Part shown: positions 20,146 to 29,247 of the stretch, piece after piece | How the letters are laid out: each line of letters begins with the position of its first letter | Numbering within the stretch: position 1 is the first letter of the stretch | Assembly (NCBI GenBank): GCA_017307865.1 | Contig: JAFKGE010000053.1 | Location: 1 to 32,717 of the forward strand | Source of the DNA: Burkholderiales bacterium | GTDB lineage: Bacteria; Pseudomonadota; Gammaproteobacteria; Burkholderiales; Burkholderiaceae_C | Reading direction: 5' to 3' | Length of the DNA: 32,717 nt | Program-made: the position numbers and the translations under genes | The notes under the pieces: model-generated | Told to the model about the DNA's origin: nothing | Database searches by the model: none | The model's input: the letters and a program-made list of their open reading frames with translations, nothing else

Positions 20146-20828
20146 CGGGCGCTGTCCGTCGGCGCGGCGGGCTCCAGCAGATAGCCCAGGCCGCGCACCG
20201 TGCGCAGCCGCACGCCGGCCGGCTCGATCTTGCCGCGCAAGCGCGACATCAGCAGCTCCATGGCGTTGTCGGAGGTGGCGGCGTTCCAGTCCGGGATCAG
20301 CGCGGCGAGCTGATCGCGCGCCACGATGGCGCCGATGTGCATGAGCAGGTACTCGATGACGATGGACTCGCGCGCGGTCAGGTTGAGCGCCTGCTCGCCG
20401 TTGTAGGCACGGCGCAGCGCCGCGTCGAAGCGCAGCGCAGCCACCTGCAGCACCCGGCTGCGCCGGAATTCGTGGCGCCGCACCAGCGCATGCAGGCGTG
20501 CCAGCAGCTCGGGCACGGCAAAGGGCTTGACGAGGTAGTCGTCGGCCCCGTTGGCCAGCCCCAGCACACGGTCGTCGATGCTGTCGCGCGCCGTCAGCAT
20601 GAGCACCGGCAGGTTCGATCCCTGCGTGCGCACCCGATCGAGCGTTTCGAGGCCATCGATGCCCGGCAGGCCGATGTCGAGCACCAGTGCGTCGTAGTCG
20701 TCCTGCAGCACCGACTTGGCCACCGGCTCGCCGCGATGGCTGACATCGACGTGCCAGCCGCGCGCACGGATGGCCTCGGCGACGGATTGCGCCAGCGTGA
20801 CGTCGTCTTCGACCAGCAGGATGTTCAT
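20142..20828 (-). CDS. tctD: Response regulator TctD-like (OmpR family)
   Basis: 228 residues. Receiver with acidic Glu7, Asp8 and Asp9, phospho-acceptor Asp51 (LDIGLPG) and Lys101 (VKPFAV); C-terminal winged helix ending RTVRGLGYLLE. Partner of the TctE kinase, likely activating tctB-tctA. ATG 20828 (MNILLVEDD) overlaps the stop of the hydrolase gene upstream as ATGA; a longer frame up to 20906 lies inside that gene and is not used. Confidence 0.93.
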   Translation of the reverse strand: MNILLVEDDVTLAQSVAEAIRARGWHVDVSHRGEPVAKSVLQDDYDALVLDIGLPGIDGLETLDRVRTQGSNLPVLMLTARDSIDDRVLGLANGADDYLVKPFAVPELLARLHALVRRHEFRRSRVLQVAALRFDAALRRAYNGEQALNLTARESIVIEYLLMHIGAIVARDQLAALIPDWNAATSDNAMELLMSRLRGKIEPAGVRLRTVRGLGYLLEPAAPTDSAR

Positions 20829-21775
20829 GTCGATCGGGCGCGTGCCGCCTGGTCCAGCCACACACCCAGGCCCTGGGCGTTCAGTTCGATGTCGATCACC
20901 AGCCATTCGGCGGCCGCGGCCTCGCCGCCGGTCCAGCCGTGGCGCGCGGCGCAGCCGGTGTAGAGCGCGCGCAGCTCGGCGCGCAGCCGCGCGTGGCGCT
21001 CGTTCACCGGCAGCCCTGCGGCGGCACGGCCGATGCTCACCATGGCGTCGATCTGCTCGTGCAGGTCGGCGGCCAGGCGCTCCACCGGGGTCAAGGGGCC
21101 GTAGTGCGTGGGACAGACCGCCGCTGGCTTGAGGGCGAGCAGCCGCTCGATGGAGCGATGCAGCGCCGGCGGGTCGAACTCGCTTGGCGAGGTGGCCGGC
21201 ACGATGAACGGCCCTTGCGCGGTGTCGAACTCGCGGTACGACACGCCGAAGGTGTCGCCGCTGAAGACCCAGCCCGAAACCGGATCAAAGATGGCGTTGT
21301 GGTGCCGCGCATGGCCCGGCGTGTCCAGGCAGATCAGGCGCCGGCCCGCCAGGTCGACCTCGTGGCCGTCGGGCGCTTCGACCACGCGCTCGGCCGGCAC
21401 CGGCACCAGGCGGCCGTAGCTGCGCTGCATCTCGGTCTCGCCGTACACCGCGGTGGCGCCGGCCCACAAGCGGCTGGGATCGATCATGTGGCGCGCCCCG
21501 CGCGGGTGCACCGCCAGGCGGGCATGGGGCAGCTGGCGCAGCAGCTCGCCCGCGCCGCCGGCGTGGTCCAGATGCACATGGGTCAGGATCAGCCAGTCCA
21601 CGTCGGCCGGCGCCAGATTCGCCCCGGCCAGGGCCGCCAGCAGGCGCGGCACCGAGTGGTTGACGCCGCAGTCGATGAAGGCGCCACGGCCCTTTTCGAT
21701 CACCAGGTAGGCCGCGTCGAGGCGCGGACGCACGAAGCCGGTGTCGATGACGTGAATGCCGTGGGAGTCGTTCAT
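20825..21775 (-). CDS. Metallo-beta-lactamase-fold hydrolase
   Basis: 316 residues, cytoplasmic. Zinc ligands HVHLDH (66-71, the HxHxDH motif), His155 in DTPGHARHH, and Asp174 in FSGDTFG. PTHYGPLTP (C-terminal third) gives the last His. Binuclear zinc hydrolase; substrate unknown, with glyoxalase II-like or other thioester/lactone hydrolysis possible. ATG 21775 preferred over a TTG at 21793. It lies 39 bp after tetR and overlaps tctD, an unusual partner for a TctDE system. Confidence 0.9.
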   Translation of the reverse strand: MNDSHGIHVIDTGFVRPRLDAAYLVIEKGRGAFIDCGVNHSVPRLLAALAGANLAPADVDWLILTHVHLDHAGGAGELLRQLPHARLAVHPRGARHMIDPSRLWAGATAVYGETEMQRSYGRLVPVPAERVVEAPDGHEVDLAGRRLICLDTPGHARHHNAIFDPVSGWVFSGDTFGVSYREFDTAQGPFIVPATSPSEFDPPALHRSIERLLALKPAAVCPTHYGPLTPVERLAADLHEQIDAMVSIGRAAAGLPVNERHARLRAELRALYTGCAARHGWTGGEAAAAEWLVIDIELNAQGLGVWLDQAARARST

Positions 21776-21814
21776 GGGAGCATGGACTTGCAACGATGGG
21801 TGAATTCTGGCCCA

Positions 21815-22486
21815 TCAGGCGACGGCGTCGGCCAGCAGTCCGCGCTCGACCATCGCCACCTGCCGCTCGGCCAGCGCCAGCCGTGCCGGCTCGTCCAGCG
21901 CGCGCAAGGGGCCGTCGATCATCAGGAAGGCCATGCCGTGAACGGCCGACCAGGCCATGAATTCAGCCCCCGGCCGACGCTCCGGTGGCAGCAGCCCGGC
22001 AGCCGCCATGGCGTCCAGCGCGTCGCCCAGCAGCTCGAAGGGATCGCGCCCGCTGGCGCCGCGCGGCGCCGGGTCGTCCAGGGCAAAGTCCTGCAGGCCG
22101 AACGGCCGCGCGGCAAACGCGGTGCGAAACAGCCCCGGCTGCTGCCAGGCGAAGCGCAGGTAGGCGATGCCGACGCCGCGCAGGGCCGCGCGCGCGCGCC
22201 GGCCCGCATCGCGCAGGCGGCGTGTGGCCGCATTCACCTCGCTTTCGATCTCCTGCGCCAGCAAGGCCAGCGCGGCGGCGCGCACGGCGTCGAACAAGTC
22301 CTGGTGACTGGCGAAATGCCGGTAGGCGGCGTTGGGCACCACGCCGGCGCGGCGCGTGGCCTCACGCAGCACGACAGCGACGGGGCCGCCTTCGCGCGCC
22401 AGCTCGATGCCGGCGTCCAGCAGGGCGCGGCGCAGGTCGCCATGCCGATAGGTGCGGCGCGCGGCAGATTTTGCGAGGTCTGACAT
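21815..22486 (-). CDS. TetR-family repressor with WHG-type C-terminal domain
   Basis: 223 residues. N-terminal helix-turn-helix (about 14-60: YRHGDLRRALLDAG, AGVVPNAAYRHFASHQDLFDAV). The C-terminal ligand/dimer part matches the WHG-domain group, with AYLRFAWQQPGLFRTAF and the AWSAVHGMAFLMIDG segment. Head of the leftward run to the hydrolase and tctDE, and divergent from the ten-gene operon at 22600. The two operator-like palindromes in the gap are probably its targets, controlling one or both directions. Confidence 0.92.
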   Translation of the reverse strand: MSDLAKSAARRTYRHGDLRRALLDAGIELAREGGPVAVVLREATRRAGVVPNAAYRHFASHQDLFDAVRAAALALLAQEIESEVNAATRRLRDAGRRARAALRGVGIAYLRFAWQQPGLFRTAFAARPFGLQDFALDDPAPRGASGRDPFELLGDALDAMAAAGLLPPERRPGAEFMAWSAVHGMAFLMIDGPLRALDEPARLALAERQVAMVERGLLADAVA

Positions 22487-22504
22487 TTGGAAACAGATCT
22501 TATG

Positions 22505-22549
22505 TGGACAGCGTTCAAATCCCTACGTAGCATAAGTGTACGGCGTCCA
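22505..22549. promoter_or_regulatory. Two matching operator-like palindromes (candidate TetR sites)
   Basis: TGGACAGCGTTCA (22505-22517) and TGTACGGCGTCCA (22537-22549) agree at 10 of 13 positions and share TG-AC-GCGT-CA. The second is part of a near-perfect 15-bp palindrome (22536-22550, 6 of 7 pairs). Centres are 32 bp apart, about three helical turns. TGTGGAC/GTCCACA at 22503 and 22545 also forms an inverted pair. Placed between divergent starts at 22486 and 22600. CTACGTAG (22523-22530) lies between. Confidence 0.6.
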
Positions 22550-22599
22550 CAATTTCTGCACCAGTGGGCATATTTCAATCCCTCATCGAGGACCCGGTC

Positions 22600-23052
22600 A
22601 TGCAATTCATTCCCTATCTCAACTTCGACGGCAACTGCGCCGAGGCCTTTGCCTTCTATGCCAAGCTGTTTGGCGGCACCATCGTCTACCAGGGCACCTT
22701 CGGCGAGATGCCGGCGCAGCCCGGCATGCCGCCGCTGCCCGAGGCGGCGAAGAAGCGCATCATGCATGTGCACATGCAGGTGGGCGAGCAGTCGCTGATG
22801 GCCTCCGACGCCATGCCCGTCGCGCCGGGGCAAGACCCCGCCACCTGCGGCGGCGGCTACCGCAAGCCCCAGGGCCTATGGGTGTCGATTCAAGTGGCTA
22901 ATGCGCCCGAGGGCCAACGCGTGTTCGACGCATTGGCGCAAGGCGGCGCCGTGGCGATGCCCTATGCCAAGACCTTCTGGTCCGAAGGCTTCGGCATGGT
23001 GACGGACCGCTTCGGCACGCCGTGGATGGTGAACGTCGCGGCGCAGTCCTGA
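22600..23052 (+). CDS. PhnB-like VOC (glyoxalase/bleomycin-resistance fold) protein
   Basis: 150 residues. PhnB-type motifs: IPYLNFDGNCAEAFAFYAKLFGG (about 3-25), MHVHMQVGEQSLMASDAMP (about 54-72) and a C-terminal FWSEGFGMVTDRFGTPWMVN. VOC folds bind metal and small electrophilic or aromatic substrates; activity here is unknown. First gene of the rightward operon, 113 bp from tetR. ATG 22600 chosen, as this family begins MQ(F/P)IPYL; a GTG at 22564 is in frame. Confidence 0.92.
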   Translation: MQFIPYLNFDGNCAEAFAFYAKLFGGTIVYQGTFGEMPAQPGMPPLPEAAKKRIMHVHMQVGEQSLMASDAMPVAPGQDPATCGGGYRKPQGLWVSIQVANAPEGQRVFDALAQGGAVAMPYAKTFWSEGFGMVTDRFGTPWMVNVAAQS

Positions 23053-23066
23053 TGGGCATTTCAACC

Positions 23067-23072
23067 AAGGAG
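23067..23072 (+). promoter_or_regulatory. Ribosome binding site choosing GTG 23079 for the first SRPBCC gene
   Basis: AAGGAG is 6 bp before GTG 23079. An alternative ATG at 23052 overlaps the previous stop (TGATG) but has no such site. Confidence 0.55.
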
Positions 23073-23078
23073 TCCATC

Positions 23079-23525
23079 GTGAGCGACCGCACCATCCATC
23101 TGCACCGCGTGCTGCGCACCACGCCCGAGAAGCTCTACCGGGCCTTCACAGAGGCCGACGCCCTGGCCAAGTGGCTGCCGCCCTACGGCTTTACCTGCAG
23201 GGTTGACCATGTGCGGGCCCGCGTCGGCGGCAGCTTCCGCATGTCGTTTCACAACTTCGGCAGCGGCAACGGGCACTCGTTCGGCGGCGAATACCTGGAG
23301 CTGGTGCCGGGCGAACTCATCCGCTACACGGACCGGTTCGACGACCCGAACCTGCCCGGCGTGCTGGAGGTCACCGTCAAGCTCAGGGCCGTGAGCTGCG
23401 GCACGGAGCTTGCCATCACCCAGGCCGGCATACCGCAGGCCATTCCGCTGGAGATGTGCTACCTGGGCTGGCAGGAATCGCTGGCGCAGCTGGCCCGGCT
23501 CGTCGAGCCCGATATTCCGGGCTGA
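23079..23525 (+). CDS. SRPBCC / AHSA1-type protein (first copy)
   Basis: 148 residues. START/Bet v1-like ligand-binding fold: HRVLRTTPEKLYRAFTEADALAKWLPPYGF (about 8-37), GGSFRMSF, GGEYLELVPGELIRYTDRFDD (about 71-91), and a closing helix with GWQESLAQLARLVE. AHSA1-like members bind hydrophobic ligands or aid stress responses, and most lack a known reaction. Cytoplasmic. The start is GTG by ribosome site. A 106-bp gap follows. Confidence 0.9.
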   Translation: MSDRTIHLHRVLRTTPEKLYRAFTEADALAKWLPPYGFTCRVDHVRARVGGSFRMSFHNFGSGNGHSFGGEYLELVPGELIRYTDRFDDPNLPGVLEVTVKLRAVSCGTELAITQAGIPQAIPLEMCYLGWQESLAQLARLVEPDIPG

Positions 23526-23631
23526 CGGCCCCGCCGCTTGCGATCTGCAGGCGGCGCGCATCAGTTCTCCAGCGCAGAGGCCACCGCGCCTTCGCCCTTG
23601 GGGTCGTACCCCCACTATGAGGAAGAACGCC

Positions 23632-24333
23632 ATGAATGCATCAGCAACACCCCGCATCGCTGACCGTGACGAGTGGGAGCGGCTGCGCGCCGACCTGCTG
23701 GCCCGCGAGAAGGCGCACACGCGCGCCGGCGATGCACTGGCCGCCGCGCGCAGGCGCCTGCCGATGCTGCGCATGGACCCCGTCACGGTCGTGGGCCGCA
23801 ACGGGCAGGTGGGGCTGCAAGACGTGTTCGAGGGCCGGCGCATGCTGCTCGTCTATCACTTCATGTGGAAGCCCGGCGCGGCGCACGAAAAGCAGTGTCC
23901 GGGCTGCACGCACACCCAGGTCGCGATGGACGCCGCCGTGCGCGCCTACCTGGCGGCACGCGACGTGAACTACGCCGTGTTCAGCAGCGGCCCCTGGGCC
24001 GAGATCGTCGCCTACCGCGACTTCATGGGCTGGACCGCGCCCTGGTATTCGACGGCCGATAGCAACGCACAGCTGGCCACGCGCGACGGCGGCGACCTGC
24101 GCTGCTACCTGCGGGTCGGCAACGAGGTCTATCTGAGCTACGAAACAACGGCGCGAGGCGTCGAGGCCATGCTGCCCACGCTCCAGCTGCTCGACCGCAC
24201 GCCCTACGGCCGGCAGGAAACGTGGGAAGACTCGCCCGCCGGCTGGCCACACGAGGACGAGGCCGGATCGTGGTGGTGGCGTGACGGTCGTCCCGTTGCG
24301 CAGTGGACGCGCATGGCAAACGCCCCGCTTTGA
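23632..24333 (+). CDS. DUF899 thioredoxin-like protein (first copy)
   Basis: 233 residues. Begins with a helical segment (WERLRADLLAREKAHTRAGDALAAARRRLP), then DVFEGRRMLLVYHFMW, CPGCTHTQ (a CXXC thioredoxin-type motif near residue 88), YAVFSSGPWAEIVAYRDFMGWTAPWYST and a C-terminal WEDSPAGWPHEDEAG block. Probably a redox protein of thioredoxin fold; substrate unknown. ATG 23632 is preceded by AGGAAG; an ATG at 23617 is possible. Closely related to the gene at 26739. Confidence 0.93.
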   Translation: MNASATPRIADRDEWERLRADLLAREKAHTRAGDALAAARRRLPMLRMDPVTVVGRNGQVGLQDVFEGRRMLLVYHFMWKPGAAHEKQCPGCTHTQVAMDAAVRAYLAARDVNYAVFSSGPWAEIVAYRDFMGWTAPWYSTADSNAQLATRDGGDLRCYLRVGNEVYLSYETTARGVEAMLPTLQLLDRTPYGRQETWEDSPAGWPHEDEAGSWWWRDGRPVAQWTRMANAPL

Positions 24334-24352
24334 CCCGGACGGAGGCACGACG

Positions 24353-25021
24353 ATGACGCGCGTTCGGGTCGAAAGCTTCACCATTTCGCTGGACGGGTAC
24401 GGCGCAGGCCCGAGGCAGAATCTCGAGCATCCGCTGGGCGTAGGCGGCGAGGCCTTGCACCAATGGGCGGTGCCCACGCGCACGTTCCAGCGCCGGGTGC
24501 TGGGCGGCGAGGACGGCACCGCCGGGGTGGACGAGGATTTCGCAGCACGCGGCTTCAGAAACCTCGGCGCCTGGATCCTGGGGCGCAACATGTTCGGCCC
24601 GATCCGCGGGCCCTGGCCAGATATGAACTGGCAGGGCTGGTGGGGGGACGATCCGCCCTATCACGTCCCCGTCTTCGTGCTGACCCACCATGCACGCGCG
24701 CCGCTGCAAATGAAGGGCGGCACGACGTTCCATTTCGTCACGGGCGGCATTCACGCTGCGCTGGACCAGGCGCGCCAGGCGGCGCAGGGGCTGGACGTGC
24801 GCATTGGCGGCGGGGTCAGCACCGTGCAGCAATACCTTCGCGCGGGCCTGATCGACGAGCTGAACATCGCCATTTCGCCGGTCCTGCTCGGAGGCGGAGA
24901 GCGGCTTTTCGATGGCATGGACCTGCCCGCCCTGGGATACGAGTGCGTGCAGTTCGTCGGCACGGAAAAGGCCGCCCATGTGGTGCTGCGGGCCTCAGGC
25001 AAGCGGCAGGAAGCGACATGA
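24353..25021 (+). CDS. RibD C-terminal / dihydrofolate reductase-like protein
   Basis: 222 residues. Fold of RibD_C: N-terminal VRVESFTISLDGYGAG, mid-protein AWILGRNMFG, and HFVTGGIHAALDQARQAAQGLDVRIGGG (about 122-149), then LIDELNIAISPVLLGGGERLFDG, which is the NADPH-binding and closing motif. NAD(P)H-dependent reductase family; substrate unknown, often not folate or riboflavin. ATG 24353 with GGAGG upstream. Its stop overlaps an ATG at 25018 (ATGA). Confidence 0.92.
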   Translation: MTRVRVESFTISLDGYGAGPRQNLEHPLGVGGEALHQWAVPTRTFQRRVLGGEDGTAGVDEDFAARGFRNLGAWILGRNMFGPIRGPWPDMNWQGWWGDDPPYHVPVFVLTHHARAPLQMKGGTTFHFVTGGIHAALDQARQAAQGLDVRIGGGVSTVQQYLRAGLIDELNIAISPVLLGGGERLFDGMDLPALGYECVQFVGTEKAAHVVLRASGKRQEAT

Positions 25022-25032
25022 AAGGATCAAGC

Positions 25033-25440
25033 ATGCAAATTACCGTCGCCACCACCGTCGCCGCCCCGCTGGCCGAAGTCTGGCGTGCCTACACCACGCC
25101 TGCGGACATCATGGCCTGGAACGCGGCCTCGCCCGACTGGCACACCACGGCCGCCACGGTTGACCTGCGCGCCGGCGGCCACTTCTCGTCGCGCATGGAA
25201 GCCAAAGACGGCAGCATGGGCTTCGACTTTGCCGGGGTGTACACCCAGGTCGTGCCGCAAAAGCTGATCGAGTACTCGTTCGGCGACCGCAGGGGAAGGG
25301 CGGAATTCAGCGACGGCTCGAAAGGTGTGACGGTAACGGTCACGTTCGACGGCGAAACGGAAAACTCCGTGGAGCAGCAGCGCGCGGGCTGGCAGGCGAT
25401 CCTCGACAGCTTCAGGCGCCACGTCGAAACGCGGTCGTGA
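25033..25440 (+). CDS. SRPBCC / AHSA1-type protein (second copy)
   Basis: 135 residues. MQITVATTVAAPLAEVWRAYTTPADIMAWNAA opening, then LRAGGHFSSRMEAKDGSMGFDFAGVYTQVVPQKLIEYSFGD and a final helix GWQAILDSFRRHVE. Same fold as the gene at 23079 but not close in sequence. ATG 25033 has AAAGGA before it; ATG 25018 would couple to the upstream stop and add five residues, so the start is open. Function unknown. Confidence 0.9.
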   Translation: MQITVATTVAAPLAEVWRAYTTPADIMAWNAASPDWHTTAATVDLRAGGHFSSRMEAKDGSMGFDFAGVYTQVVPQKLIEYSFGDRRGRAEFSDGSKGVTVTVTFDGETENSVEQQRAGWQAILDSFRRHVETRS

Positions 25441-25537
25441 CCGGGCACACCCCTGTTCGTTCAACCCTCATCGGACACCGCCCAAGCACTTGAGCGCACA
25501 GGAACGGGACCGACTGCAGCGCTTGCTCAAGACCACG

Positions 25538-26185
<648 letters not shown>

Positions 26186-26230
26186 AACGCCAGGCCTTCA
26201 GGCAAGCCTGCAAGGGCATGGAGAAACGTC

Positions 26231-26716
26231 ATGACGAAACCCGCCAAGAACACCATCTGCCTTTGGTACGACGGCACGGCCGAGGAGGCGGCGCGCTTTT
26301 ACGCCCAGACCTTCCCCGATTCTTCCGTCGGCGCGGTGCACCGCGCGCCGGGCGACTACCCCGACGGCAAGCAGGGCGACGTGCTCACCGTCGAGTTCAC
26401 CGTGCTGGGCATCCCCTGCCTGGGGCTCAATGGCGGTCCCGTCTTCAAGCACAGCGAGGCATTCTCGTTTCAGGTCGCCACCGTCGACCAGGCGGAGACC
26501 GACCGCTACTGGAATGCCATCGTCGGCAACGGCGGCCAGGCCAGCGAGTGCGGCTGGTGCAAGGACCGGTGGGGCCTGTCGTGGCAGATCACGCCCATCG
26601 CACTGACCCGCGCCTACACCAGCAGCGACCGCGCCGCCGCCAAGCGCGCCTTCGACGCCATGATGAGCATGGGCAAGATCGACGTCGCCGCCATCGAGGC
26701 GGCGGTGCGCGGTTGA
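26231..26716 (+). CDS. PhnB-like VOC protein (3-demethylubiquinone methyltransferase-type fold)
   Basis: 161 residues. Motifs: TICLWYDGTAEEAARFYAQTFPDSSVG (about 8-34), FTVLGIPCLGLNGGPVFKHSEAFSFQVAT and GWCKDRWGLSWQITP (about 114-128). Automated annotation often calls this group 3-demethylubiquinone-9 methyltransferase, but it is a VOC fold without a SAM motif. GGAG before the ATG. Differs from the VOC gene at 22600 in subgroup. Confidence 0.92.
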   Translation: MTKPAKNTICLWYDGTAEEAARFYAQTFPDSSVGAVHRAPGDYPDGKQGDVLTVEFTVLGIPCLGLNGGPVFKHSEAFSFQVATVDQAETDRYWNAIVGNGGQASECGWCKDRWGLSWQITPIALTRAYTSSDRAAAKRAFDAMMSMGKIDVAAIEAAVRG

Positions 26717-26738
26717 TCGAACGAAGGAGAACGCCACC

Positions 26739-27452
26739 ATGAAAGACTCTGCCCGGCCGCCGGTCGTCGATCGCGCGGCGTGGGAACGTGCCCGCGCCGA
26801 ACTGCTGGCCCGCGAAAAGGCCCACACGCGCGCCGGCGATGCGCTGGCCGCCGCGCGCCGGCGCCTGCCGATGACGCCCATGCCCGCCATCACCGTGGTC
26901 GGCGCCCATGGCCCCGTTCCCCTGCACGAGGTGTTCGAGGGCCGGCGTCAACTGCTGGTCTACCACTTCATGTGGAAGCGCGGCGCGCCGCACGACAAGC
27001 AGTGCCCTGGCTGTACGCACACCCAAGTGGCGCTGAACGATGCGGTGCGCGCCTACCTGGCCGAGCGCGACGTGAGCTACGCCGTGTTCAGCCGTGGCCC
27101 CTGGCCCGAGCTTGCGGCCTACCGCGACTTCATGGGTTGGACGGCGCCCTGGTATTCGACGCAGGATTGCCAGGACGACGAGATGGCCACGCGCAACGGC
27201 GGCGACCTGCGCTGCTACCTGCGCGTGGGCAGCGAGGTCTTCATGAGCTATGAATCGACGCAGCGCGGCATCGAGGCGATGCTGCCCACGCTCCAGCTGC
27301 TCGACCTCACGCCCTACGGCCGGCAGGAAACGTGGGAAGACTCGCCCGCCGGCTGGCCGCACCAGGACGAAGCCGGATCCTGGTGGCGGCGGGACGGCCG
27401 TCCCGTGGCGCAGTGGACCCGCATCGCGGCAGCCAACGCCGACCAGCCATGA
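26739..27452 (+). CDS. DUF899 thioredoxin-like protein (second copy)
   Basis: 237 residues. Same layout as the gene at 23632: WERARAELLAREKAHTRAGDALAAARRRLP, EVFEGRRQLLVYHFMW, CPGCTHTQ, YAVFSRGPWPELAAYRDFMGWTAPWYST and WEDSPAGWPHQDEAG. The two share long DNA identity near their 3' ends (about 24178-24280 and 27288-27390), so the pair is a recent duplication or is kept alike by gene conversion. AAGGAG before ATG 26739. Its end overlaps the DUF4256 gene as ATGA. Confidence 0.93.
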   Translation: MKDSARPPVVDRAAWERARAELLAREKAHTRAGDALAAARRRLPMTPMPAITVVGAHGPVPLHEVFEGRRQLLVYHFMWKRGAPHDKQCPGCTHTQVALNDAVRAYLAERDVSYAVFSRGPWPELAAYRDFMGWTAPWYSTQDCQDDEMATRNGGDLRCYLRVGSEVFMSYESTQRGIEAMLPTLQLLDLTPYGRQETWEDSPAGWPHQDEAGSWWRRDGRPVAQWTRIAAANADQP

Positions 27453-27988
27453 CCAACCAGGAACGCGACAAGCTCCTGCGCGCGCTGCAGAACCGCTTCG
27501 ACCAGCACCAGCGGCGCCATCCCGCCATCGCCTGGGCCGCGGTGCAGCAGCGGCTGCTGGGCCAGCCCGAGGCGCTGCGTGCCCTGCACTGGATGGAAGG
27601 CACGGGCGGCGAGCCGGACGTGATCGCCCAGGACGCGGGCGCCTGCGTGTTTGCCGACTGCTCGCCCGAGAGCCCGCCCGGGCGCCGCAGCCTGTGCTAC
27701 GACCGTGCCGCGCTGGACGCGCGCAAGGCCAACAAGCCCGGCGGCAACGCCCTCGATACCGCCGCCGAGGCGGGGGTCGAGCTGTTGAGCGAAGCGCTGT
27801 ACCAGCACCTGCAGACGCTGGGCGAGTTCGACACCAAGACCTCCAGCTGGCTGCTGACCCCGTCGGGCGTGCGCAGCCGCGGCGGCGCGCTGTTCGGCGA
27901 CCGGCGTTTCGGCCGCGTGTTCATCTATCACAACGGCGCCGAGTCCTACTACGCGGCGCGGGGTTTCCGCGCGTCGCTTCGGGTTTGA
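27449..27988 (+). CDS. DUF4256 family protein
   Basis: 179 residues, cytoplasmic. Family features: LLRALQNRFDQHQRRHPAIAWAAVQQRL (N-terminal), ALHWMEGTGGEPDVI, FADCSPESPPGRRSLCYDRAALDARKANKPGGNA (about 69-102), LLSEALYQHLQTLGEFDTKTSSWLLTP and FGRVFIYHNGAESYYAARGFRASLRV. Role unknown. Translation is coupled to the second DUF899 gene by a 4-bp overlap, suggesting joint action. Confidence 0.9.
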   Translation: MTNQERDKLLRALQNRFDQHQRRHPAIAWAAVQQRLLGQPEALRALHWMEGTGGEPDVIAQDAGACVFADCSPESPPGRRSLCYDRAALDARKANKPGGNALDTAAEAGVELLSEALYQHLQTLGEFDTKTSSWLLTPSGVRSRGGALFGDRRFGRVFIYHNGAESYYAARGFRASLRV

Positions 27989-28031
27989 TAGCGCCCGGCC
28001 CCATCCTCTCGCAATCCATCCGGAGTCCCAC

Positions 28032-28418
28032 ATGGCACACAATCCCGTCGTCTGGTTCGAAATCTACGTGCAGGACATGGCCCGCGCCCAGCGCTTTTAC
28101 GAGGACGTGCTGCAGTGCAAGCTGCAGCCCCTGACCCCGCCCGACAGCGTGGCCGGCGGCACGAAGATGATGGCCTTTCCCATGGACATGGCCGCGCCCG
28201 GCACGGGCGGCATGCTGGTGCAGATGGCCGGCGTGCCCTCGGGCGGTGGCGGTACGCTGGTGTACTTCGGCTGCGACGATTGCGCCCTGCCGCAAGGCCG
28301 CGTGCTGGCCGCAGGCGGACGCATCGACAAGCCCAAGTTCGCGATCGGCCCCTACGGCTTCATCGCGCTGGTGGTGGACACCGAGGGCAACTGCGTCGGC
28401 CTGCATTCGATGCAGTGA
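28032..28418 (+). CDS. VOC family (glyoxalase-fold) protein
   Basis: 128 residues, single VOC domain: PVVWFEIYVQDMARAQRFYEDVLQCKLQPL at the start, TLVYFGCDDC in the middle, and a closing FAIGPYGFIALVVDTEGNCVGLHSMQ, where conserved metal-site residues of the glyoxalase-like fold are expected. The substrate is unknown. Last gene of the rightward operon, 43 bp after DUF4256. It ends 59 bp before the leftward membrane protein stop. Confidence 0.93.
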   Translation: MAHNPVVWFEIYVQDMARAQRFYEDVLQCKLQPLTPPDSVAGGTKMMAFPMDMAAPGTGGMLVQMAGVPSGGGGTLVYFGCDDCALPQGRVLAAGGRIDKPKFAIGPYGFIALVVDTEGNCVGLHSMQ

Positions 28419-28477
28419 GCCTGGAGGCGATGCTGGTCGGCGTCGTGGCCAAGATCGCACGCGGTCAGAGCGCGACC

Positions 28478-28888
28478 CTAAGAGAACCAGCGCAAAAACG
28501 CGGCAGCGGCCAGCGCGGTGGCACCCAGCGCCGCCAGCACGCGCCACCTCGCCGCGCCGCCCCCACCACCGGTCGCCGCCTGCGGGCGCAGCAGCGCCAG
28601 CGCCAGCAGCGCCACGGCCGTCAGCGCACACAGCAGCTTGAGCACCAGCGCGCCGATGGCGATGCCGTGGATGTCCGGCAACTGGCCGTAAAAATGGTAG
28701 CTGACCAGGCCGAACAGGCCGCCGCTGGCCAGCTGCAGCGCCCAGCCCGCCAGCGCCAGCCACAGCACGCCACGCGCACCCGCCGATTTGGCGGTGGCCA
28801 GCGCGTACAGCGGCGCGGCGACCACGATCACGGCGCCGAAGTTGTGGCCGACCTGGGTCAGCGCATAGGCGAGGTTTTGCCCGTCCAA
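28478..28888 (-). CDS. Small membrane protein of unknown function
   Basis: 136 residues with four hydrophobic segments (AVIVVAAPLYALATA; VLWLALAGWALQLASGGLFG; IAIGALVLKLLCALTAVALLALALL; RVLAALGATALAAAAFL). Starts TTG at 28888, five bases after the stop of the Ig-like gene, with GAG just before; no ATG is suitably placed. Conserved-looking polar residues: His15 (VGHNFG) and His45 (SYHFYG). I do not recognise the family. Likely acts with the exported protein upstream. Confidence 0.75.
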   Translation of the reverse strand: MDGQNLAYALTQVGHNFGAVIVVAAPLYALATAKSAGARGVLWLALAGWALQLASGGLFGLVSYHFYGQLPDIHGIAIGALVLKLLCALTAVALLALALLRPQAATGGGGGAARWRVLAALGATALAAAAFLRWFS

Positions 28889-28893
28889 GCCGG

Positions 28894-29247
28894 CTACTCG
28901 ACGCTGACGGTCACGCAGCGCTGCAGCCCGATGGGCACATGCGCCTTGTTGGCGACCTTGATGCAGATCTCGTGCGTGCCGGCGGCCAGCGTCTCCAGCG
29001 TGTAGCTGCCCTTGAGCTGGCGCAGGATGCCCGTTTCCTTGCCGTCCACGTAGACGTGCACGTGGTCGCCGCCCGGGCCGGGCACCACGGCGTACACCAG
29101 CTTGTTCTGGTTCATCGCGTCCAGCTTGGCGCCGTCCTTGGGCGAGTCGATGGTGATGGAGCCCTCGGCCGCCAGGGCGGCCGGCGCCAGCCAGGCAGCG
29201 CCCGACATCAACGCGAGCAAAAGAGTGAAGGCAGGCAGGCGGCGCAT
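28894..29247 (-). CDS. Exported small Ig-like domain protein
   Basis: 117 residues. Signal peptide (about 1-27, cleavage after ALA) and one compact beta-sandwich domain: ITIDSPKDGAKLDAMNQNKLVYAV, then GGDHVHVYVDGKETGILRQLKGSYTLETLAAGTHEICIKVANKA and QRCVTVSVE. The HVHVYVDG motif could bind metal. One Cys pair (ICIK, RCVT) may be disulfide-bonded. The ATG at 29247 has GGAGC before it. Function unknown; shares an operon with the membrane protein that follows. Confidence 0.82.
   Translation of the reverse strand: MRRLPAFTLLLALMSGAAWLAPAALAAEGSITIDSPKDGAKLDAMNQNKLVYAVVPGPGGDHVHVYVDGKETGILRQLKGSYTLETLAAGTHEICIKVANKAHVPIGLQRCVTVSVE

What the first reader, a model, noticed from the sequence alone, without database searches (positions are those of the whole stretch)
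22487..28418. Ten-gene accessory operon of small detox/stress proteins behind a divergent TetR
Ten same-strand genes with short gaps or overlaps: two PhnB-like VOC, two SRPBCC, two DUF899 with CPGC motifs, a RibD_C reductase, a GST, DUF4256 and another VOC. Families of this kind often cluster, in many genomes with an ECF sigma factor, but here none is present and a TetR with paired operators sits at the head. The mix of thioredoxin-like, reductase, glutathione and VOC folds suggests a stepwise pathway against an electrophilic or aromatic compound. Substrate and most activities are unknown.
Basis: partly seen in the sequence, partly recalled or inferred. Interest (0 to 1): 0.75.

Follow-up and report, generated by a model that had tools for sequence, protein, structure and literature searches.

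The report
Shuffled detox operon under twin-operator TetR
Ten small putative detoxification and stress genes appear to share one switch, a TetR-type repressor with two DNA landing pads around a single promoter; the switch recurs in many bacteria while the genes behind it vary, so finding the compound that flips it would give clues to several unstudied protein families.

Summary
In detail: ten same-strand ORFs (22600-28418) of the named Pfam families behind a divergent TetR (21815-22486). Two exact copies of TGNACNNNGTNCA (22505-22517, 22537-22549) flank the only sigma70-like promoter found in 21700-28900; no terminator was found. A paired-site pattern hits this genome once. Over 31 TetR heads examined, window included, 18 carry both sites exactly and 27 at least one; random windows gave 0 pairs in 18,116. 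Divergent VOC, DUF1428, SRPBCC, RibD_C or related genes follow 24 of the 31. Beside rlmB, 7 of 12 other genus genomes fetched carry TetR plus a variant operon. Cargo varies: DUF899, RibD_C and DUF4256 are missing from those seven, while a DUF1428-VOC2-VOC1 core is kept in six. No cysteine is conserved in the TetR, which argues against a thiol sensor. Inducer, substrates, DNA binding and enzyme activities are untested. My ten paper searches found no account of this system.

The parts
21815..22486 (-). divergent TetR regulator (TetR_N, TetR_C_33), no cysteine
22505..22517 (.). operator O1, TGGACAGCGTTCA; its first six bases are the -35
22505..22533 (+). sigma70-like promoter TGGACA-17-TAGCAT, the only one found in 21700-28900
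22537..22549 (.). operator O2, TGTACGGCGTCCA, starting 4 bases after the end of the -10
22600..23052 (+). VOC1, PhnB/YjdN-like
   Evidence: (YjdN model below its cut-off)
23052..23525 (+). SRPBCC1 (AHSA1)
23632..24333 (+). DUF899a with CPGC
24353..25021 (+). RibD_C (dihydrofolate-reductase-like)
25033..25440 (+). SRPBCC2 (AHSA1)
25538..26185 (+). glutathione S-transferase
26231..26716 (+). VOC2 (3-dmu-9_3-mt), close to solved 1u69
26739..27452 (+). DUF899b with CPGC
27449..27988 (+). DUF4256, overlaps DUF899b by 4 bases
28032..28418 (+). VOC3 (Ble-like_N, Glyoxalase)

Best explanation
This is a TetR-repressed battery of small detoxification and repair proteins whose cargo changes from genome to genome under a conserved switch. 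Shown by sequence: two copies of one operator flank the promoter-like site (O1 contains its -35, O2 follows its -10), and the regulator, its DNA-binding helix and the operators are conserved in relatives. Inferred: TetR dimers on O1 and O2 block the promoter, probably also that of tetR; a small, probably hydrophobic molecule binds the C-terminal domain and releases them; the battery is then made together and its members act in parallel on the compound, its products and damaged cell parts (VOC and GST chemistry, NADPH reduction by RibD_C, dithiol chemistry by DUF899, lipid or aromatic binding by SRPBCC). Inducer and substrates are unknown.
For: Ten genes with short junctions; one promoter-like site and no terminator in 21700-28900; both operators exact in 7 of 9 heads found by TetR alone, 6 of 7 found by rlmB alone, 18 of 31 over all; 0 pairs in 18,116 random windows; paired-site pattern in 4 of 300 order genomes, once each, all at heads of this TetR, backward control 1 of 300; related cargo divergent from TetR in 24 of 31 heads and none in 5 of 5 rlmB sites without the TetR; an MFS transporter in the cargo of L161 and beside the Rubrobacter homologue; no conserved cysteine.
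Against: No expression, binding or activity was measured. 7 of 31 heads show none of the query families on the divergent side (L162, L166, L065, L213, L214, L215, L219; L213 was read over only 3.6 kb and L215 has an MFS gene there by annotation), so switch and cargo are separable. 4 of 31 heads have no exact site. In only 10 of 16 twin-site heads tested does the best-scoring promoter start at O1. The pattern found 3 of the 6 other genomes of that draw known to carry this TetR. Six of the 31 heads other than the window's were reached through DUF899 and one through DUF4256. A core gene order is kept among the seven rlmB-site relatives, so the shuffling is not free. The word detoxification rests on family resemblance.
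Confidence: 0.7

Rival explanations
1. A stepwise pathway: the ten enzymes act in sequence on one electrophilic or aromatic compound.
For: Reductase, GST, VOC and thioredoxin-like families together could be ordered on paper; DUF899, RibD_C, both SRPBCC, VOC1 and VOC2 recur together in several of the DUF899-bearing clusters.
Against: DUF899, RibD_C and DUF4256 are absent from all seven rlmB-site operons found by rlmB alone; DUF4256 is in 2 and GST in 5 of 24 loci; four heads have one recognised VOC gene only. The clusters that share DUF899 were found through it.
Confidence: 0.12
2. A redox or electrophile regulon in which the TetR itself senses through cysteine oxidation or alkylation, as NemR does (recalled).
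For: GST, DUF899 with CxxC and VOC genes in the cargo; GFA in three relatives.
Against: The window TetR has no cysteine; the commonest Cys column holds 6 of 31 homologues.
Confidence: 0.05
3. Not one regulatory unit: a loose cluster of similar small genes with their own promoters, only the first of them under TetR.
For: Two gaps of about 100 bases; cargo differs widely and some heads have one recognised gene; promoters of other sigma types are not covered by the scan.
Against: No second sigma70-like site and no terminator found in the region; two overlapping junctions; the same families recur behind the same regulator in 24 of 31 heads.
Confidence: 0.13

Closest known systems
TetR-tetA type divergent unit with two palindromic operators (background passages of PMC9736018)
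   Same: divergent TetR-family gene, two palindromic operators between regulator and target, single-component repression expected
   Different: many-gene variable cargo instead of one pump; different operator and C-terminal domain; ligand unknown
ECF41 and ECF42 loci (passages of PMC3426412, PMC8999054, PMC6180224)
   Same: accessory genes of small oxidoreductase or unknown families next to a dedicated regulator; ECF41 has only local targets; YCII, the ECF42 neighbour, appears in the related cluster L141
   Different: no sigma factor gene on this contig; control by a repressor with operators instead of a sigma factor
NemR (recalled, not fetched)
   Same: TetR family repressor with a reductase and a VOC enzyme as targets
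   Different: NemR senses through cysteine (recalled); this TetR has none
Deinococcus sp. KNUC1210 plasmid locus (L171)
   Same: homologous TetR (55% identity) divergent from alpha/beta hydrolase, dihydrofolate-reductase-family and DUF899 genes, with a metallo-beta-lactamase-fold gene nearby
   Different: three-gene cargo; only a one-mismatch operator found

Membership tests
TetR family regulator | N-terminal TetR helix-turn-helix with a C-terminal regulatory domain | tested here: met
   TetR_N and TetR_C_33 over the cut-offs
TetR-repressed divergent operon | palindromic operators overlapping or flanking the target promoter | tested here: met
   O1, promoter-like site and O2; conserved in relatives
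TetR-repressed divergent operon | operator binding and derepression by a ligand | not testable with these tools
   needs gel shift, footprint and reporter
ECF41 or ECF42 locus | ECF sigma factor gene in the cluster | tested here: not met
   no Sigma70_r2 match on contig C77
ECF42 locus | YCII-domain gene in the neighbourhood | tested here: not met
   none of the ten genes matches YCII in Pfam, and a YCII query found none in the window
NemR-type thiol sensor | conserved regulatory cysteine | tested here: not met
   no Cys in the window TetR, no conserved Cys column in 31 homologues
thioredoxin-like DUF899 | DUF899 match with CxxC | tested here: met
   thioredoxin-like clan from one passage of PMC3091736
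thioredoxin-like DUF899 | redox activity | not testable with these tools
   needs purified protein

The most novel reading that the evidence does not exclude
One unnamed TetR subfamily with an invariant DNA-binding helix and a twin-operator promoter is the master switch, in several phyla, of an exchangeable toolkit of poorly known small proteins (PhnB-like VOC, DUF1428, SRPBCC, DUF899, RibD_C, GFA, GST, DUF4256): a one-component counterpart of the ECF41 and ECF42 loci, whose cargo is swapped at a fixed chromosomal site beside rlmB in this genus and its neighbour.
Probability: 0.5. Interest if true: 0.7.

Novelty: new variant of a known kind. Interest (0 to 1): 0.5.

Why it matters
Several of these families are domains of unknown function or have no tested physiological role that I know of. 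One conserved repressor with a readable operator offers a reporter with which the inducer can be screened for, and the inducer would point to the substrates of the cargo. The site beside rlmB is also a natural series for how a regulated operon gains, loses and reorders genes under a fixed switch.

Tried and rejected
DUF4256 as bait for gene order led nowhere: of the best 80 loci kept from 582 relatives in a capped scan, 10 of 80 held any other query family within the stretch read, mostly kilobases away; only L065 had VOC2 beside it. Other DUF899 genes (L133, L144-L150) had none of the cluster around them apart from scattered VOC2, RibD_C, DUF4256 or GST matches. Recent duplication of DUF899a and b: they fall on different branches, with support of about 0.8, so it stays open. 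DUF4256 structure: mean pLDDT 68, no PDB match at E<=0.001. A single-site operator count is uninformative (103 per strand, backward control 127); only the pair is. Ten paper searches listed no account of this regulator or operon; the library lacks most subscription journals, and no paper was read whole. Not examined: 10 of the 24 rlmB-bearing genus genomes beyond the short loci.

Full report
Anatomy. Ten open reading frames run on the + strand from 22600 to 28418. Pfam places them as VOC (3-dmu-9_3-mt, Glyoxalase), AHSA1, DUF899, RibD_C, AHSA1, GST, VOC (3-dmu-9_3-mt), DUF899, DUF4256 and VOC. Two junctions overlap by 1 and 4 bases; seven have gaps of 11 to 106 bases. The divergent gene 21815-22486 has TetR_N and TetR_C_33; no NCBIfam model reaches its cut-off on it.

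Control region. Between the TetR start and VOC1 lie two exact copies of TGNACNNNGTNCA, 32 bases apart: TGGACAGCGTTCA (22505-22517) and TGTACGGCGTCCA (22537-22549). The only sigma70-like promoter found in 21700-28900 is TGGACA-17-TAGCAT at 22505-22533, against 0.4 expected; no terminator-like site was found, against 4.2 expected in shuffles. The -35 is the first six bases of O1, and three bases separate the -10 from O2. A repressor on both sites would hide the promoter; that is inference from the layout.

Is the operator real? In the window alone two sites are weak evidence (4 of 100 shuffles reach 2), and single sites are common in the genome (103 per strand, backward control 127). The pair is not: a paired pattern hit this genome once and 3 others of 300 in the order once each, all four at heads of this TetR, with 1 backward-control match in the 300 (places compared). 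That pattern fixes GTGGAC in the first site and missed three further genomes of the draw that carry the TetR (G941, G959, G989). TetR homologues were then taken without regard to the operator: of nine other genomes found by TetR alone seven have both sites exactly; of seven heads found only because they lie beside rlmB, six do. Over 24 heads, window included, 16 have both, and random 300-base windows from the same loci gave 0 pairs and 45 single hits in 18,116 draws. Seven further heads (G1179 and six plasmid records) add two with both and three with one exact site. In all 18 of 31 have both and 27 of 31 at least one; L065, L171, L214 and L217 have no exact site. The best-scoring promoter starts at the first base of O1 in 8 of 10 twin-site heads but in only 2 of 6, so 10 of 16: the promoter overlap is common, not universal.

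Co-conservation. DUF899b led to close copies (73-81% identity) in five other genomes: G018 and G025 of the genus (of 29 searched) and G292, G419 and G404 of the family (of 399 searched). All five have the divergent TetR and a cluster of the same families in other orders. Extra genes tested by Pfam in L131 and L141 are DUF1428, GFA, Anthrone_oxy, GST, RibD_C, YCII and two glyoxalase-fold proteins. These five were found through DUF899, so having it is by construction. In the TetR-only set 7 of 9 have VOC1-, VOC2- or DUF1428-like genes divergent from the regulator; in L163, L164, L168 and L169 one VOC gene is the only recognised query family, though in L168 a SnoaL-like gene follows.

One site, changing cargo. 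rlmB lies downstream of the operon in the window, in G018 and in G419 and G292 of another genus. rlmB was found in 24 of 29 genus genomes; I fetched 11-13.5 kb around it in 12 besides those held. Seven of the 12 have the TetR and an operon there; five have neither, and one of those (G025) has its operon on another contig. The five empty stretches hold none of the query families. Among the eleven rlmB-site operons I count nine arrangements after collapsing adjacent repeats (from, families at E<=1e-6). The shuffling is not free: in the seven found by rlmB, VOC2 always precedes VOC1, and DUF1428-VOC2-VOC1 opens six of them. DUF899, RibD_C and DUF4256 are absent from all seven at that threshold. 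A fixed pathway would not be expected to tolerate this; a battery of separately useful proteins would. Some genes lie in two pieces in draft relatives, by decay or assembly error.

Regulator. Over 31 homologues 39 residues are invariant, among them P51, A53, A54, Y55, R56, H57 and F58 of the DNA-binding part; the window protein has no cysteine and the commonest Cys column holds 6 of 31. A cysteine sensor is therefore unlikely. The six regulators of the DUF899-bearing Burkholderiales clusters form one clade, support 0.989. On plasmids or large second replicons 11 records matched, ten with 53.6-63.1% and one (Nocardia) with 38.4% identity: Cupriavidus, Caballeronia, Rubrobacter, Streptomyces, Deinococcus, Embleya, Nocardia. 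Where annotated, the gene divergent from the TetR is an MFS transporter in Rubrobacter, a dihydrofolate-reductase-family gene in Streptomyces and D. aetherius, and an alpha/beta hydrolase followed by such a gene and DUF899 in Deinococcus sp. KNUC1210. The MFS gene, also in L161, is the best hint that the signal is a toxic small molecule.

Enzymes. VOC2 is a close relative of the solved, uncharacterised 1u69 and VOC1 of 1u6l; RibD_C resembles 3kgy; the GST matches LigF-, YibF- and maleylacetoacetate-isomerase-type chains at low scores. DUF899 has no convincing solved relative by sequence (best E 0.41); a passage of PMC3091736 lists it in the thioredoxin-like clan. DUF4256 is strikingly conserved (56 invariant columns in 32 sequences), but its model was poor and matched no solved fold.

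Against my reading. 7 of 31 heads show none of the query families on the divergent side: L162, L166 and L065, L213 (a 3.6-kb locus), L214, L215 (MFS by annotation) and L219. Presence was scored by homology within 9 kb on the divergent strand, not by proven co-transcription. Nothing here measures expression, binding or activity, and the word detoxification rests on family resemblance.

Known or new. Control by a TetR with two operators is familiar (passages of PMC9736018). ECF41 and ECF42 loci are the nearest parallels for the cargo (passages of PMC3426412, PMC6180224 and PMC8999054), but membership fails: no sigma gene lies on this contig. Ten paper searches listed no account of this regulator or operon. 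I call it a new variant of a known kind.

Noticed in passing
20825-21793 (-): A metallo-beta-lactamase-fold hydrolase follows TetR on the same strand. A homologue lies near the TetR in L131 (547 bits), and lactonase-annotated genes lie near it on both Deinococcus plasmids.
   Followed up: partly
L209:9362-12169: In G023 a SIR2-type gene, which lies beyond the TetR in several relatives, is about 1.3 kb from rlmB, as if the TetR operon had been lost or had never arrived.
   Followed up: partly
27449-27988: DUF4256 has relatives in many bacterial phyla and one archaeal MAG, with 56 invariant columns in 32 sequences, yet no paper in the library names it.
   Followed up: partly
L162, L166, L214, L219: One TetR clade (support 0.989) has operators or near-operators but none of the query cargo beside it; its target may lie elsewhere.
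   Followed up: no
L161:6718-8158: An MFS transporter lies between the VOC and DUF1428 genes behind this TetR, read in two pieces; the second piece is just below the Pfam cut-off.
   Followed up: partly
P. aeruginosa PA2722-PA2721 (not fetched): A table passage of PMC9736018 lists a GFA gene next to a VOC gene in one ChIP peak of another TetR, PA3973, the same pair of families as in some of these operons.
   Followed up: no
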